64,000 nt of DNA. Origin: Thermoanaerobaculia bacterium (lineage in GTDB: Bacteria > Acidobacteriota > Thermoanaerobaculia > Gp7-AA8). The stretch is from positions 95,028 through 159,027 of the forward strand of contig JADGNZ010000009.1 of NCBI GenBank assembly GCA_017883205.1, in the 5' to 3' direction. Both the position numbers and the translations under genes were made by a program. The notes under the pieces were generated by a model. That model did no database searches. It saw nothing but the letters and a program-made list of their open reading frames with translations, and was not told the DNA's origin. Of this stretch, positions 1 through 6,764 are shown piece by piece (the stretch's first letter is position 1; each line of letters opens with the position of its first letter).

Positions 1-1618
1 AGCTCGTGTCGTCTGCGGCGCCCTTCGGAGCCAGACGATCTGCGGCGCCTTCGAAGTCGGCGGAGACGGTCAATCCAACTACAGCCTGTCTCAGGTCAGA
101 GCCGCTCAATTCATGCGAATCCGAGTGTGTCCCCTCCAGACTGAAGCGAAGGGCTGTGTTGGAGCTGCCGAAATCGAAGCCGACGAAGAACTCGATTGGC
201 GGCAATCCGCTGCGCGTTTCCTTGCGGCTCAGCAGCACCGTGCATGAAGCCTTCACGCTAGAGGTATTGGACAACTCGAATGCCGGCAGCTCCGTGGCTT
301 TACTCTCCGTGCGGATGCGGTTTTCACCGACGCCGCGCACATTCTTAGCGGAAGACGGAACTTGAATCGTTAACCCGTCAGCAGTAGCAATGTCGAACCA
401 GCTCCAGGTTGGCGGCACCAGGGTGGGGTTCGGATACATGGCAATCGACCCGGCCATGCTCGCAGCAGGGAGGAAGATCCACGAAATGTCGGCTGGCAGT
501 CCCTTGAGCCCGAGCGTTACCTCGACGCGATTGTTGACCTTGCGAGCGCGGCCGGTGTTTACCAATCGCGCATTCTCGATTCGCACAGGCAGCGGTATGG
601 CTGCCACAGGCGCCGCCGGGTCGGGGTCACCTGGCCAGAGATAGCTCGAGTAATTGAGATCGTCGAGGCGATCGATAACCCGAAACGGAGTCCCGGGCTG
701 CAGATCGAACGTCAGGTTTCGCACCGGTAGATTCGCGAGCGCGCTCACCGCAGGGTAAACGAACGTAACGGTGGCCTGATCTCTGTCGACGATAGGCGCC
801 GGAGGCATCCGTATGGCTTTGGAGGGATCAGCCCACTGCAGCGCGCGCTCGCGCCATACGACGAATTCGCCGTCAGCCCAGGCGCATCCGTAGTCAGAGA
901 GTAGAAGTTGCCTGGTCTGTTGGCACTTCGGGCACTTGAGCGCGAACATTGGGCTGTCTGGGGCCGGCTTCACACTCGCGGGAAGGAGCGGAGCGGCGCA
1001 CTCTGCGCAGCGCGGGAACAGGAACGAGCCGTCTCCCGTGGGAACCAGGATCTCCGTGGATTCCAACGTGTATGGGTCCAGAAAACTGAACGGGGTCAGC
1101 ACGACTTCGCTCTCGGGAGTGGTGGTCGCAGGTCCGACGGCGCGCGGGCTGATGATCGGCGACAGCCGACAACAGAACGGCGCTGAGTTGCGCTGCTTTG
1201 CTTTTGCTTTCTCGTCCAGGTTTTTGACAAGCTCGGTCAGCCGGCCGCGGACACGTTCTGTAATGGGAGCGGTTGCATCCCATGGACTTCCCGCGAGGTG
1301 CTCGTCGGGCAACGGCCGCACGAGGAGCACCGGGCTCACGACTCCAACGATCTTCCCTTCGCGGTCCAGCCAAGAGATTTTATCGAACACAGGGGCGCCG
1401 TCCCCACGTCCTCCTTGACGAGGTACCCAATTGAGAAATGGCTGTCCTTTCAGGGGCTGCTCAATCACCTTCAAGTCGTCGTTCAAGTACCAGAGAAGAA
1501 GCTTCCACCAGGCGTTTCGCTTCTGCTCGATCTCCAGCGTCAAGTTGCCGGTGGCCTCGAGCGCAGCCAGGTATGCGAGGTCTTCATGGAAGAAATTGCC
1601 AATCGAAAGCGGATTCAT
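1..1618 (-). CDS. Partial protein (C-terminus outside window): unique N-terminal region with a zinc ribbon, then the start of an actin/Hsp70-fold ATPase domain
   Basis: Read by hand from the reverse complement: uninterrupted frame from ATG at 1618 to window base 1 (about 539 codons), missing from the ORF track because no stop lies in the window. MNPLSIGNFFHEDLAYLAALEATGNLTLEIEQKRNAWWKLLLWYLNDDL...; FPRCAECAAP...FALKCPKCQQT (two CxxC knuckles); FFVGFDFGSSNTALRF resembles the phosphate-1 motif of actin/Hsp70 ATPases. Start overlaps the upstream stop (ATGA). Confidence 0.8.
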   Translation of the reverse strand, partial: MNPLSIGNFFHEDLAYLAALEATGNLTLEIEQKRNAWWKLLLWYLNDDLKVIEQPLKGQPFLNWVPRQGGRGDGAPVFDKISWLDREGKIVGVVSPVLLVRPLPDEHLAGSPWDATAPITERVRGRLTELVKNLDEKAKAKQRNSAPFCCRLSPIISPRAVGPATTTPESEVVLTPFSFLDPYTLESTEILVPTGDGSFLFPRCAECAAPLLPASVKPAPDSPMFALKCPKCQQTRQLLLSDYGCAWADGEFVVWRERALQWADPSKAIRMPPAPIVDRDQATVTFVYPAVSALANLPVRNLTFDLQPGTPFRVIDRLDDLNYSSYLWPGDPDPAAPVAAIPLPVRIENARLVNTGRARKVNNRVEVTLGLKGLPADISWIFLPAASMAGSIAMYPNPTLVPPTWSWFDIATADGLTIQVPSSAKNVRGVGENRIRTESKATELPAFELSNTSSVKASCTVLLSRKETRSGLPPIEFFVGFDFGSSNTALRFSLEGTHSDSHELSGSDLRQAVVGLTVSADFEGAADRLAPKGAADDTS

Positions 1619-2922
1619 TTGCCCGCCCTCCTGCGCATCAGTCGGTACAGCAGTTCGGCGGCCGCGGCGCGAAGCACACTTTCGGCCTCTGGGTACGCGG
1701 CCTCGAGAATCGGATGAAGTCGCTCAGGAAGTTCCGCCGACGCCAGTGCTTCCCTCAACGCGGTGAAGTCGACAATCGCGGGCTGCCTCGCCACCAGAGC
1801 GCCATCAAGCTGCCGGAACGTGTCGGCCATCGCGGCCGAGACTTTGGGGATGAATTTATCGAACGACTCTCCCTCAACGCGATCCATCCACTTCTTCCAG
1901 AACTGGAGCACACCGTCCCTTAGGAATCTCCCGACATATGCGCGGCTCAGGGGGTCCCGGCTGATAGTCTGCAGAAAGTTCCCGCTCACCAGGTAGCGGA
2001 CAGCGTTCTTTGCCTTCTGCGAGCGATCCTTGAGTGCATCGCGAAGACGATTCACGCCGGCCACGTCGTCAGGAATACCGCCGATGGTTGTCGTCACAGG
2101 ATTCTCGTATTCCTGCAACAGCCTGCTGATCCACCACGCACCTGCCCAGATCGGATTGCGGTCGGGAGGGAACTTGCGGTCCGCGTCCTTGTCCCAGATC
2201 TCGTCCTGCGGGGACTCGAGCACCCGCCGCACGAAAAGCTTGGTGCCGCCGGCATCATACGCGTCGATATTCCGAACAAATTCCTCGTGGTTCTGATCGT
2301 GGCGGTCGACCAGATCGGCGTTGGCACGTGCCTCGCGAAATGTCAGATACCGACCCAGAGCAATGACGCTGATGAAGCGCACCCCTCGGGAGCGGAGCAA
2401 CTGAAGAATCGACGGAGTGAATCCGGTGCCTGCGCCCCCGAACGTGGAAGTAATCACGACCGCGCCGTCGACATCGCCGAGGGCCGCGTACAGGTCAGAG
2501 ATGAGCTTCCCAGCGTAGTACGGCCACGCAAAACCAAGGGCCGCGGGCGTCGCAAAAAGCCCTTCGTCGAGTCTGGCTTCGCGCAGTTTTTGCGACGCGT
2601 ATGCCATTTCCGGCTTCATCGGCCGACTGCTGGCAGCGCTATTGATCACGGTCTCAATGTTTGCTTTGTCAACCTTGAGGGAATGCCGCTCGAATGAAAA
2701 CCGACTGCTTGCAGAGGTATCGATGAGGAAATCGCGCAACACCTCCCACGCCGGCCTGCGATCGCCGCCTTTTTCCGTCTCCTGATCGATCACGATTACC
2801 TTCACTTGCGGCACCGCTCCGGAGTTTTCGAGCGGCCCTATGCGCAGGAGATGCGCTCGCAGAAAGAAATCGAGAGCAGTTTGTCCCGTGCCACCAAGTG
2901 CAACGATCGCAAGGCTTGCCAT
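1615..2922 (-). CDS. Tubulin/FtsZ-like GTPase-fold protein (Tubulin_2-like)
   Basis: MASLAIVALGGTGQTALDFFLRAHL (N-terminal nucleotide-binding loop) and VVITSTFGGAGTGFTPSILQLL, matching the tubulin/FtsZ GGGTG(T/S)G signature. Confidence 0.8.
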   Translation of the reverse strand: MASLAIVALGGTGQTALDFFLRAHLLRIGPLENSGAVPQVKVIVIDQETEKGGDRRPAWEVLRDFLIDTSASSRFSFERHSLKVDKANIETVINSAASSRPMKPEMAYASQKLREARLDEGLFATPAALGFAWPYYAGKLISDLYAALGDVDGAVVITSTFGGAGTGFTPSILQLLRSRGVRFISVIALGRYLTFREARANADLVDRHDQNHEEFVRNIDAYDAGGTKLFVRRVLESPQDEIWDKDADRKFPPDRNPIWAGAWWISRLLQEYENPVTTTIGGIPDDVAGVNRLRDALKDRSQKAKNAVRYLVSGNFLQTISRDPLSRAYVGRFLRDGVLQFWKKWMDRVEGESFDKFIPKVSAAMADTFRQLDGALVARQPAIVDFTALREALASAELPERLHPILEAAYPEAESVLRAAAAELLYRLMRRRAGK

Positions 2923-2930
2923 TCAGTACC

Positions 2931-3578
2931 TCATGTCCGATCTCTGGTCGTTTTTTGATGTCGTCGCGCAGTGGAATAGATATTGGGAAGAAGGGCGTAG
3001 ACGACATACGCGAGCAACGCACCGACGATGGACGCCGACACGACGCTGGCGAACACCAGCAACGGATTGTCCATCACAAAGGCTCCCCGTTTTCCCACGA
3101 CGTAGCCTGTCGTCTGACGCCGCATCGCGAGAGCGTTCTGCGTCTGGTCCGGCGTGAGAACCTGCTTCTGTGCGGGATTCGTGGTGGCGTCGACTACCTT
3201 CACGTACAAGGGGTCGACACCTACCCACTGCCACGCGGGCGGCCAGATTGTGAGTACCAGACCGACGAGGAGCGCAACCGCTGCAGGAATGAGCGCACCC
3301 CAAAGGCATCGCTTGCCGATCCGGAGGTAGTCGCGATCCGTCAAGGCTAGAACGAGGGGTAGAACAAACGGTAACAAAAACCCGACCAGGAAGAACCCCC
3401 ATACGACTTCATCGATCAACGTGGCGACGCTCTGATCGATGTGGTCCAGCTTCGTAATAACTTGGTCGATTTGATCGTGGGTCCCGCGAATCGTGGTTTG
3501 TCGATTGCACCCAACTCCTATCAGAAGAAGGGCGCTGACGAGCAGAACGGCCTTCCATCGCTTCGCCTTCATCACCAC
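2931..3578 (-). CDS. Membrane protein of unknown function, first gene of the tubulin-like/actin-like operon
   Basis: N-terminal hydrophobic segment ending ...LLLIGVGCNRQ, coiled polar segment, then at least three predicted TM segments; 8 nt upstream of the tubulin-like gene, same strand. Confidence 0.7.
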   Translation of the reverse strand: MVMKAKRWKAVLLVSALLLIGVGCNRQTTIRGTHDQIDQVITKLDHIDQSVATLIDEVVWGFFLVGFLLPFVLPLVLALTDRDYLRIGKRCLWGALIPAAVALLVGLVLTIWPPAWQWVGVDPLYVKVVDATTNPAQKQVLTPDQTQNALAMRRQTTGYVVGKRGAFVMDNPLLVFASVVSASIVGALLAYVVYALLPNIYSTARRHQKTTRDRT

Positions 3579-3740
3579 CTCCGTCTGTTGTCCTAAAAGG
3601 GAGCAGTTGACCTCGCGAGAACGACGATACGCGTCGTTGCGCTCAGTTCCGCGTTTGATCGTTTGGAATTGATACCGATTGCCGCAGGTATTCTAGACTG
3701 CCGGGATGGCAATGGTCCAGCTATCGTTCCGGTATCTCGT

Positions 3741-5159
3741 ATGAACGACTCCGCTTCTTCGCCTGCAGGCGCCCCGCCCGCGATCGAGATCCGAGGCTTG
3801 AACAAGCTTTCCGTGCGCGGCGCCGACCTCACCGTGTGGCAGGGAGATCGTGTTGCCATCATCGGAAAGACAGGGCAAGGCAAGTCAGTGCTGCTCCGGT
3901 GTATCCTCGGCCTACTCTCTCCCGACAGTGGCGACCTGCGGCTGATGGGGCGTAAGGTGACACGCCGTTCCATCGCCTCGGAAGGCGTTGGCGTCGCCTT
4001 CCAGCACCCCGGTCTTCTCGACGCTTGGTCCGTTGCCAAGAATCTCCGTGTCGCCACACGCGACGTTTTGAGTCGGAGCCGGATTGTTGAACTGCTCGCG
4101 TCTGTTGGGTTGACCTCGGTCGATCCCGAATCGTCAGTGACTCTGCTGTCAGGAGGGCAGCAGAAGCGTCTGTCTCTCCTGCGCGCGCTGCTTCGGGGCA
4201 ATCGGCTTGTCGTGCTGGACGAGCCGACGAGCGGCCTCGACCCGCGAACAGCCGAGGCGATTGCCGAGATGATGGCCGACGCTATCCGAAACGAACCACG
4301 TACGCTGCTCCTCGTCACCCACGACTACGAGACCGCTGTCCGGTTGTGCAACCGCATCATCACTCTCAGGCACGACGGCACTCTTGTCGAAGTACCGATT
4401 CCTTCTACCGGAAGGGTCGTAGATGACGCCGTGGCACTTCGCGACGCGTTGCCGGACGAAGAAGCTACTATCAAGGGCCGGACCACGCGACCACCACGCT
4501 GGGGCATCGTTCCACTCACACTCGACCTGCTCGCCTTCGGCGTGCCACTTGCCGGTGTTGCGATGGGCTTGCTGGGCACACTGCTCGTGGCGCAGAGCGC
4601 GAAAGTCGGGGCTTTTGACGTAAGCCGCTACATTCCAGGAGCCGTCCTCCTCGGAGTCTGCCGCGAGATGGCCCCACTGGTCGTTGGTTTTCTACTCGCA
4701 GCCCGAGCGGGCGCGCGCGTGACGGCGGAACTGGCTGGCATGAGCTACACCGCTCAACTCGACTCCCTCCGGGCTCTGGGGCGTTCGCCCATCCGTCATT
4801 TTTTTCTGCCGTTTCTCACCAGTGCCGCCATCGCTTTCCCAATTTCGATCCTGGCCGGTGCCGCCCTTGCCATCGGCGCGGCGGGTTTGTATGTCGGCCT
4901 GCCAACCGCAGGATTGAGTATCGGTACTCGCAGATTTTTCGACCTTGCCCGCGAAAGGATGGAAATGGCGCTGCTCTTCTCCATGCTGCTCAAGGGCGTC
5001 GGGATGGCGGCGACGGTGGTGACCGCGTCCTACTGGTGCGGCGCTCGGAGCGTGACCAGCGCGCCTGCCGTTGGGAGAGCGGTCACGCGCGCTGCGGTCC
5101 TGGGGTCGCTATCCGTAGTGCTCGTGGACATCGTTGTTTCGTGGCTCTTTTTCGGATGA
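3741..5159 (+). CDS. Fused ABC transporter: MlaF-like ATPase and MlaE-like permease in one polypeptide
   Basis: Walker A GKTGQGKS, signature LSGGQQKR, Walker B LVVLDEPTSGLDP, then MlaE-type REMAPLVVGFLLAARAGARVTAELAGM. MNDSASS start preferred over the ORF-track start at 3663. Confidence 0.88.
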   Translation: MNDSASSPAGAPPAIEIRGLNKLSVRGADLTVWQGDRVAIIGKTGQGKSVLLRCILGLLSPDSGDLRLMGRKVTRRSIASEGVGVAFQHPGLLDAWSVAKNLRVATRDVLSRSRIVELLASVGLTSVDPESSVTLLSGGQQKRLSLLRALLRGNRLVVLDEPTSGLDPRTAEAIAEMMADAIRNEPRTLLLVTHDYETAVRLCNRIITLRHDGTLVEVPIPSTGRVVDDAVALRDALPDEEATIKGRTTRPPRWGIVPLTLDLLAFGVPLAGVAMGLLGTLLVAQSAKVGAFDVSRYIPGAVLLGVCREMAPLVVGFLLAARAGARVTAELAGMSYTAQLDSLRALGRSPIRHFFLPFLTSAAIAFPISILAGAALAIGAAGLYVGLPTAGLSIGTRRFFDLARERMEMALLFSMLLKGVGMAATVVTASYWCGARSVTSAPAVGRAVTRAAVLGSLSVVLVDIVVSWLFFG

Positions 5160-5659
5160 AAGGAACGGACATGAACTACAGGAAGCTCGGCCTCATCTCA
5201 CTCTTGATTCTGGTGTCGCTTACGATTCACTGTCGGCAGGAGGAGGGACCTACGGAACTTCACTTCACCCTTACGTTCAAGGACGCCCAGCAACTTCGCC
5301 CCGGCCAGTTCTTCCTGTACAAGGGTGTCCGAATCGGCCAGGCGACTTCTGTAACCCTCGATGGTTCTGGTGTGGTGAAGGTCAGTATGACGGTCGACGA
5401 GACGCATCGCGAACAGGTATACCGGGAAGCAACGTTCACGATCGAGAAGCTCAGTCTGCTGAACCCCAGCGGCGAGCATCAAATCGTCATGACGGATGGC
5501 GGCGATACCCACACACCGATTGAGGAAGGCGCTGTCATCGCCGGGAGCGAGGGCTGGCTCAGCGACGCAGCGGAGAAGGCTGGGCAGCTAGTGAATACCG
5601 CCACCGATCTAGCTTCGGACGCTGCCAAGAAACTCGGCGACAAGGCAAAGAAACCCTGA
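5156..5659 (+). CDS. MCE/MlaD-family lipoprotein-like substrate-binding protein
   Basis: ATGA overlap with the transporter; MCE-like LTFKDAQQLRPGQFFLYKGVRIGQATSVTLDGSGVVKVSMTVDE; hydrophobic leader ending ...LTIHC. Confidence 0.78.
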   Translation: MKGTDMNYRKLGLISLLILVSLTIHCRQEEGPTELHFTLTFKDAQQLRPGQFFLYKGVRIGQATSVTLDGSGVVKVSMTVDETHREQVYREATFTIEKLSLLNPSGEHQIVMTDGGDTHTPIEEGAVIAGSEGWLSDAAEKAGQLVNTATDLASDAAKKLGDKAKKP

Positions 5660-5714: not shown

Positions 5715-6386
5715 TCACTTCTGCTTCGGGGTGGGTGGTGGTGCTGGTTTCGTCTTGCACGGATGACCGGAGCGCCCGCGGGCGGGCTGCATCGTCTTTA
5801 CGTGGGCGACGAGTGAGGCGGCTCGGGCGTTACGGGTGTATCCCTTGGCGAGGTTGTACACATGCAACGCTTGCTGCACGACGTCCCAGCGCTCCCGGAA
5901 TATGTTGTACCGAACGTCCCGTGCAAGCGCTTCGGCGGCTGCGGCGAGAGGCTCGAACCGCAGGTTGCGGGTGATGCCCAGGCGTGTTTTCACCGGATCG
6001 AGACCGGTCGTTGCCTGCATCGACGCGTCGTTTTCCGCCGCGACGGCACTGGCTTCGGGAAACACGTCAGGGACGGCGCGGGCCGCACGCATCATCTTGA
6101 TGCCTTCAGCCGGCGCCGGCACGAAGTCGGGCAGGATCTGATAGAAACCGCAAAGCTGCGCCACCGACTGCTGGACAAGTCCGTCGAGCGCCGCAATGCC
6201 GGACGCTCCGGACGGGATCAAGAAGGCGCGCGCGCAGCGCGCGGTGGATCGCGCTGCGTTGCGCGACGCCGTCGATCGCGAATGTTCTCGCAGCCGGCTG
6301 ACGGCGACCCGACCGGGGCCCACTGCGACACATACCGTATCGCAGCGTTGCGCCCTGGTTGCGCACGTGCGCATCCACCGTGTCAC
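5715..6386 (-). CDS. Hypothetical protein; true start uncertain (ORF-track start lies inside the tandem repeats)
   Basis: Central and C-terminal part looks coding; resembles the protein at 7063-7620 in its helical core and Pro/Lys-rich tail. Confidence 0.5.
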   Translation of the reverse strand: MTRWMRTCATRAQRCDTVCVAVGPGRVAVSRLREHSRSTASRNAARSTARCARAFLIPSGASGIAALDGLVQQSVAQLCGFYQILPDFVPAPAEGIKMMRAARAVPDVFPEASAVAAENDASMQATTGLDPVKTRLGITRNLRFEPLAAAAEALARDVRYNIFRERWDVVQQALHVYNLAKGYTRNARAASLVAHVKTMQPARGRSGHPCKTKPAPPPTPKQK

Positions 6387-6735
6387 AGCGTTACACCCTC
6401 GGTGCGCACGTGCGCACCTACCGTGTCACAGCGTCGCACCCTCGTTGCACGCGTGCGCACCCACCGTGTCACAGCGTTACACCCTCGGTGCACACGTGCG
6501 CATCCACCGTGTCGCAGCGTTGCACCCTCGGTGCACACGTGCGCACCCACCGTGTCACAGCGTTGCACACTCGGTGCACACGTGCGCACCCACCAGGTCA
6601 CAGCGTTACACCCTCGGTGCACACGTGCGCGCCTACCGTGTCACAGCGTTGCACCTTCGGTGTACACGTGCGCACCGGCCATGCCGCATCGTCGCACGCG
6701 TGGTGCGCAGGTTTGCACGCATCGTGTTGCAGCGT
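6320..6735. repeat. 43-bp tandem repeat array, about 10 units, with GTGCRCACGTGCGCAC palindromes
   Basis: Recurring ccgtgtcacagcgtt at 6335, 6378, 6421, 6464, 6507, 6550, 6593, 6636, degenerate at 6679 and 6722: constant 43-bp spacing. Confidence 0.95.
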
Positions 6736-6764
6736 TCCATGTCGTCGTTTCCCCGCGTTGCCCC

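What the first reader, a model, noticed from the sequence alone, without database searches (positions are those of the whole stretch)
1..3578. Operon pairing a tubulin/FtsZ-like protein with an actin/Hsp70-fold protein and a membrane protein
The tubulin-like gene (GGTGQT; TFGGAGTGFTPS) overlaps by ATGA with a large gene carrying a phosphate-1-like VGFDFGSSNTALRF after an ~460-aa N-terminal region with a CxxC...CxxC zinc ribbon. Co-translation of tubulin-fold and actin-fold NTPases with a membrane protein is unusual and suggests a membrane-linked assembly, a chaperone/GTPase system, or a conflict system. The actin-like gene is invisible in the ORF track because its end lies outside the window.
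Basis: partly seen in the sequence, partly recalled or inferred. Interest (0 to 1): 0.92.

Follow-up and report, generated by a model that had tools for sequence, protein, structure and literature searches.

The report
Tubulin–Hsp70 operon with membrane motor
A bacterium of the phylum Acidobacteriota carries a six-gene cassette that ties a tubulin-like protein and an Hsp70/actin-like protein to what looks like an ion-driven rotary motor in the cell envelope, resembling the motor of the Zorya phage-defence system but with a different cytoplasmic output; it recurs, sometimes with the two proteins fused into one, in other bacteria, and no description of it was found in the literature searched.

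Summary
The tubulin-like gene (435 aa) and the Hsp70/actin-fold gene (956 aa, zinc ribbon intact) overlap by ATGA and follow a 3-TM membrane protein. Beyond the window edge the operon continues with a vWA lipoprotein, a ZorA/MotA-like 3-TM plus coiled-coil protein and a ZorB/MotB-like peptidoglycan-binding protein. The same gene order, in full or as far as the contigs reach, recurs in other Acidobacteriota and in one Bacteroidota genome. In five loci the tubulin and Hsp70 parts are one 1478–1692-aa polypeptide. Predicted models match FtsZ and Hsp70 first in the PDB. The nucleotide-binding motifs, the ZorB ion-conducting Asp and the vWA MIDAS residues are conserved. The operon sits in a variable island and is absent from congeners. 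It is not Zorya (no ZorC/D/E), not the FtsZl1/Tubulin_2 system (no coiled-coil, no GTPase) and not a GAP1-N2 GTPase conflict system, but resembles all three in part. Best reading: an accessory envelope-sensing, ion-motor-coupled system whose output is a tubulin–Hsp70 NTPase module, probably anti-phage or envelope defence. The function is inferred, not shown.

The parts
2931..3578 (-). 3-TM membrane protein (215 aa, N-terminal signal/anchor), first gene of the operon
   Evidence: TM segments; same position upstream of the tubulin gene in the G271, G291, G439 and G788 loci, and a candidate TM gene in the same place in G032, L046 and L047
1615..2922 (-). Tubulin/FtsZ-fold protein (435 aa), T1 GGTGQ and T4 GGAGTG motifs, no TM
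   Evidence: PF00091 E 0.0015, below cut-off; Foldseek: FtsZ/TubZ only in the top 50
1..1618 (-). N-terminal 539 aa of a 956-aa Hsp70-NBD/actin-fold protein: N-terminal region, CxxC...CxxC zinc ribbon (residues ~205-234), phosphate-1 loop at 479; the gene continues to G000:C100:93775 outside the window
   Evidence: (profile of relatives vs PDB: BiP/DnaK E 7e-7); catalytic K, E, DLGGGT..D and GNGW motifs present
1..1 (-). Marker only: the operon continues outside the window (left) with a vWA lipoprotein G000:C100:92118-93767(-); a ZorA/MotA-like protein C100:90533-92104(-) with 3 TM and a coiled-coil tail; a ZorB/MotB/OmpA-like protein C100:89796-90536(-)
   Evidence: (OmpA PF00691 E 3e-8)

Best explanation
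The genes form one six-gene accessory system, probably horizontally acquired, that spans the cell envelope: TM protein, tubulin-like GTPase, Hsp70-NBD ATPase with zinc ribbon, periplasmic vWA lipoprotein, ZorA-like stator, ZorB-like peptidoglycan-binding stator. Shown: gene order and co-conservation, tubulin-Hsp70 fusion, folds (by model and profile), intact nucleotide-binding motifs, conserved ion-path Asp, peptidoglycan-binding and MIDAS residues, patchy distribution. Inferred: as in Zorya, a ZorA5B2-like motor tethered to the cell wall reads an envelope disturbance (phage injection or envelope damage), perhaps gated by the vWA lipoprotein. Ion-driven movement of the cytoplasmic ZorA-like coiled-coil tail then recruits or activates the tubulin-Hsp70 pair, which assembles (GTP) and is remodelled or disassembled (ATP) at the membrane and blocks the infection or remodels the membrane. 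No nuclease is present in the operon, so the assembly itself, or membrane disruption driven by it, would be the effector.
For: Six-gene order, within the limits of the contigs, in the own genome, G271, G439, G788 and Bacteroidota L044, with the tubulin-Hsp70-fused form in G291. Spacers are -22 to +37 bp in the four loci measured and pairwise-identity matrices of the six families correlate at r 0.69-0.97. Tubulin and Hsp70 parts are one ORF in L011 (1478 aa), L014 (1599), L065 (1625), L046 (1692) and L047 (1681), from Acidobacteriota and Bacteroidota. FtsZ fold, Hsp70 NBD fold, NTP motifs in 13 divergent members. ZorB-like: top PDB sequence hit 8vvn_B, E 1e-12, which is type I ZorAB per PMC11890865; Asp14 invariant and GHTD/NW.LS..RA/NRRT motif; hhalign E 1.4e-8 to a local Zorya ZorB (121). 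ZorA-like: hhalign E 4e-5 to local Zorya ZorA, same 3-TM layout. vWA MIDAS invariant. Variable island, absent in congeners. The related ZorAB-less architecture lies near FGE-sulfatase, TPR, NB-ARC+EAD10 and caspase-like genes; HSDR_N, DNA methylase, RNA ligase, SocA and HNH genes flank other copies. The own genome has separate FtsZ and DnaK genes.
Against: No experiment. Defence-gene neighbours were seen in some loci but not tested for enrichment; other loci have housekeeping neighbours. The ZorA transmembrane part has no sequence hit in the PDB and its hhalign probability is only 70%. In two loci of the divergent fused subtype (L014, L047) no OmpA domain was detected in the ZorB-like protein. 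The tubulin T7 catalytic loop was not identified, so GTP hydrolysis and polymerisation are unproven. No copies found in plasmid, phage or viral collections. Structure models are low confidence (mean pLDDT 52 and 58).
Confidence: 0.5

Rival explanations
1. A membrane-remodelling or cytoskeletal scaffold machine, not immunity: the tubulin-Hsp70 pair forms a membrane-attached filament and the motor pair anchors it to peptidoglycan, as Makarova & Koonin (2010) proposed for FtsZl1/vWA/OmpA operons.
For: FtsZl1 operons also combine an FtsZ-like protein with vWA and, in some genomes, OmpA-domain proteins (PMC2875224); conserved NTP motifs.
Against: Very patchy distribution: absent from two congeners, 15 other genomes of the same family and nearly all of the class sampled; a housekeeping scaffold would be expected to be more stable.
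Confidence: 0.2
2. A conflict system of the Kaur et al. 2020 type in which tubulin and Hsp70 act as multimerising or decoy effectors under chaperone-like thresholding, and the ZorAB-like pair is an attached membrane effector rather than the sensor.
For: Those systems pair tubulin or HSP70 with vWA proteins (PMC7159879); the ZorAB-less relatives here (L039, L040) lie beside FGE-sulfatase, TPR, NB-ARC/EAD10 and caspase-like genes.
Against: No TRAFAC/DO-GTPase or GAP1 gene recognised in these operons; in Kaur et al. the tubulin and HSP70 themes do not overlap, whereas here they sit together, even fused.
Confidence: 0.2
3. A Tol-Pal/ExbBD-like energised trans-envelope machine (transport or envelope maintenance) using tubulin/Hsp70 as cytoplasmic regulators.
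For: Related inner-membrane ion-driven motors also power flagella, type 9 secretion, gliding and Ton uptake (abstract of PMC11890865); lipoprotein plus peptidoglycan-binding partner.
Against: No outer-membrane receptor, TonB or Pal/TolB component in the operon; the ZorB-like part is closest to ZorB/MotB; accessory distribution.
Confidence: 0.1

Closest known systems
Zorya anti-phage systems (ZorAB core)
   Same: ZorA-like 3-TM stator with long coiled-coil tail and ZorB-like protein with invariant ion-path Asp and OmpA peptidoglycan-binding domain, adjacent genes
   Different: No ZorC, ZorD or ZorE; instead a tubulin-like GTPase, Hsp70-NBD/zinc-ribbon protein, vWA lipoprotein and 3-TM protein
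FtsZl1 / Tubulin_2 (PF13809) vWA-OmpA operons (Makarova & Koonin 2010, PMC2875224)
   Same: Divergent FtsZ-fold protein with vWA and OmpA-domain partners
   Different: Tubulin-like protein is short, without the long coiled-coil extension; no PF13809 match for the window protein and only sub-threshold for relatives; no GTPase or kinase partner; Hsp70 partner or fusion not described there
GAP1-N2 GTPase-centric conflict systems (Kaur et al. 2020, PMC7159879)
   Same: Use tubulins, HSP70s, zinc ribbons and membrane vWA proteins; FGE-sulfatase effectors in related loci
   Different: No GTPase/GAP1 core; tubulin and HSP70 themes are non-overlapping there but joined or fused here; no ZorAB described there
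DnaK / Hsp70 and MreB
   Same: Actin-fold NBD with the nucleotide motifs of Hsp70
   Different: No canonical C-terminal substrate-binding domain recognised; large N-terminal extension with zinc ribbon

Membership tests
FtsZ/tubulin superfamily (fold) | GTPase-domain fold with T1 and T4 glycine loops | tested here: met
   Foldseek top 50 all FtsZ/TubZ, best E 5e-5, on a low-confidence model; GG(T/S)G and GG(T/A)G in all 13 members
FtsZ/tubulin superfamily (fold) | T7 catalytic loop, GTP-dependent polymerisation | tested here: inconclusive
   T7 not recognisable in alignments; C-terminal part of the model mostly below pLDDT 50; polymerisation needs experiment
Hsp70/actin ATPase fold | Phosphate-1, catalytic Lys, Glu, phosphate-2, adenosine motifs and NBD fold | tested here: met
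Hsp70 chaperone (DnaK type) | C-terminal substrate-binding domain and lid | tested here: not met
   Only the NBD region is matched in sequence; roughly 100-120 aa of unmatched sequence after it
Zorya | ZorA: MotA-like TM core plus long cytoplasmic tail | tested here: met
   hhalign E 4e-5 (probability 70%) to local Zorya ZorA, same 3-TM layout; no PDB sequence hit for the TM part
Zorya | ZorB: TM Asp plus peptidoglycan-binding domain | tested here: met
   for the classical subtype; OmpA domain not detected in two fused-subtype loci
Zorya | ZorC/ZorD or ZorE effector genes | tested here: not met
   All six operon genes are other families; no ZorC/D/E hit in PADLOC scans
FtsZl1/Tubulin_2 system | PF13809 match, coiled-coil region and alpha-helical C-terminal domain | tested here: not met
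   no or sub-threshold PF13809 match; protein of 435-443 aa has no room for the long coiled-coil (coiled-coil itself not computed)
FtsZl1/Tubulin_2 system | vWA and OmpA-domain gene partners | tested here: met
   OmpA by Pfam; vWA by invariant MIDAS residues in alignment, no Pfam vWA hit
GAP1-N2 GTPase conflict system | TRAFAC GTPase plus GAP1 core | tested here: not met
   No GTPase family match among the operon proteins
Anti-phage defence system | Protects against phage | not testable with these tools
   Needs a plaque assay

The most novel reading that the evidence does not exclude
An ion-driven ZorAB-type rotary motor mechanically controls a composite tubulin-Hsp70 filament: a bacterial machine in which both great cytoskeletal NTPase folds are combined in one unit (and in some species one polypeptide) and act as the effector of an envelope-sensing immune system.
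Probability: 0.25. Interest if true: 0.93.

Novelty: new variant of a known kind. Interest (0 to 1): 0.76.

Why it matters
Tubulin-fold and Hsp70/actin-fold NTPases fused in one protein and tied to a stator-type motor is, as far as the literature searched here shows, undescribed. If the motor drives or gates the assembly, it would extend Zorya-type motor immunity from nuclease effectors to cytoskeletal effectors, and would give a direct test of how a membrane ion motor passes a signal to a filament-forming NTPase.

Tried and rejected
Housekeeping FtsZ or DnaK misread: rejected, both exist elsewhere in the genome. Simple Zorya: rejected, effectors missing. MoxR-vWA ternary system: no MoxR gene in the operon. 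Tubulin_2 member: sub-threshold only. Phage or plasmid cargo: no hit in phage, plasmid or viral collections. The ZorB-like plasmid hit in Burkholderia (H1) is an unrelated MotB/OmpA context. The neighbouring channel-vWA gene pair P0008/P0009 is not conserved with the system. ZorA TM profile against PDB: no hit.

Full report
Observation. The three in-window genes are as described. Tubulin-like: window 1615-2922(-), 435 aa, GGTGQ and FGGAGTGF. Actin-fold: overlapping by ATGA, with CAEC...CPKC and VGFDFGSSNTALRF. Membrane protein: 2931-3578(-). The window is G000:C100:95028-159027 of a 6.37-Mb, 99.7% complete genome whose phylum is Acidobacteriota, judging from genomes of the same phylum whose contigs bear names.

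The rest of the operon. Contig sequence to the left of the window completes the actin-fold protein at 956 aa and adds three co-directional genes: a 549-aa lipoprotein with a vWA domain (FLDASGSM, TDG), a protein of about 523 aa with three TM segments and a long coiled-coil-like tail, and a 246-aa OmpA-domain protein (PF00691 E 3e-8) that PADLOC places nearest ZorB (E 6.5e-14).

Folds. Five-row alignments gave AlphaFold models of low confidence (window tubulin-like protein pLDDT 52; Hsp70-like protein of the relative L041 pLDDT 58), but Foldseek lists only FtsZ/TubZ in the top 50 for the first (best E 5e-5) and only Hsp70/DnaK/BiP for the second (best E 3e-9). Sequence profiles agree: PF00091 E 1.5e-3 and 1.3e-4, below the curated cut-off; Hsp70 structures E 7e-7. 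Across 13 members as low as about 20% identity, the T1/T4 loops and the Hsp70 nucleotide motifs are kept. The zinc ribbon is kept in most members of the unfused subtype and in the G291 fusion, and absent in the more divergent fused loci.

Conservation. With the tubulin and Hsp70 proteins as probes, the same TM-tubulin-Hsp70-vWA-ZorA-ZorB order was found in G271 (split over two contigs), G439 and G788; in G291 with tubulin and Hsp70 fused; and, as far as the contigs reach, in Bacteroidota L044 (starting at tubulin) and Bryobacterales L045 (tubulin and Hsp70 seen). Divergent fused loci occur in G032, G819 and Bacteroidota L046/L047. Fused lengths are 1478, 1599, 1625, 1692 and 1681 aa, in two phyla, so an assembly error is an unlikely cause. 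In four loci measured the genes are spaced -22 to +37 bp, and the six families' identity matrices correlate at r 0.69-0.97.

Motor. The ZorB-like profile's best solved-structure hit is 8vvn_B, which PMC11890865 reports as Shewanella type I ZorAB; that paper shows the ZorB Asp and peptidoglycan binding are needed for defence. Here the Asp (D14) is invariant and the peptidoglycan-binding motif conserved. The ZorA-like protein has the same three-TM plus long-tail layout as local Zorya ZorAs and aligns to them by profile (E 4e-5, probability 70%). In two fused-subtype loci the ZorB-like protein keeps the Asp but no OmpA domain was detected.

Mobility. Only one copy occurs in the genome; two congeners and 15 other genomes of the same family lack it. 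In congener G001 the flanks (S66 peptidase, ABC-F ATPase) are conserved at about 83-85% identity but the intervening 17.6 kb is replaced by an unrelated 5.9 kb. A second, ZorAB-less architecture (vWA-tubulin-Hsp70) sits near FGE-sulfatase, TPR, NB-ARC+EAD10 and caspase-like genes. Restriction-type, methylase, RNA-ligase, SocA, HNH and transposase genes flank other copies, though this was not tested for enrichment.

Known systems. Zorya (ZorC/D/E missing), FtsZl1 operons (PF13809, coiled-coil and GTPase missing) and GAP1-N2 conflict systems (GTPase/GAP1 missing; their tubulin and HSP70 themes are non-overlapping) each match in part; membership in each fails a defining feature. Nine literature searches found no description of a tubulin-Hsp70-ZorAB system; most preprints and most subscription journals are not in the library.

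Mechanism. Shown by sequence and models: an envelope-spanning, accessory, NTP-motif-intact, motor-linked module. Inferred: Zorya-like sensing of envelope disturbance and output through a tubulin-Hsp70 assembly. Function, polymerisation and phage protection remain untested.

Noticed in passing
L002:6430-9731 (G000:C100:86430-89731): Convergent neighbour: a 949-aa protein with an ion-channel domain (PF07885) and a C-terminal vWA-like region, plus a 150-aa membrane protein; not found at other loci of the system.
   Followed up: partly
window 6334-6736: 43-bp tandem repeat, about 8-9 copies, in a GC-rich stretch.
   Followed up: partly
window 3663-5159: MlaF-like ATPase and MlaE-like permease appear fused in one 498-aa ORF, followed by an MCE-like gene (5036-5659); read by eye, not tested.
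   Followed up: no
L039, L040: Second architecture: vWA-TM-tubulin-Hsp70 without ZorAB, with zinc-ribbon proteins carrying FGE-sulfatase, TPR or PKD domains; similar large Hsp70-like ORFs in several other Blastocatellia-type genomes.
   Followed up: partly
L037:927-6796: Hsp70-like protein (841 aa) plus vWA lipoprotein plus a DnaK-like protein, no tubulin gene seen: a further reduced relative.
   Followed up: no
L047:14743-15387, L014:5935-6531: In the divergent fused subtype the ZorB-like protein keeps the TM Asp but no OmpA domain is detected.
   Followed up: partly
L011:1348-5376: 1343-aa zinc-ribbon protein near the G291 locus, family unknown.
   Followed up: no
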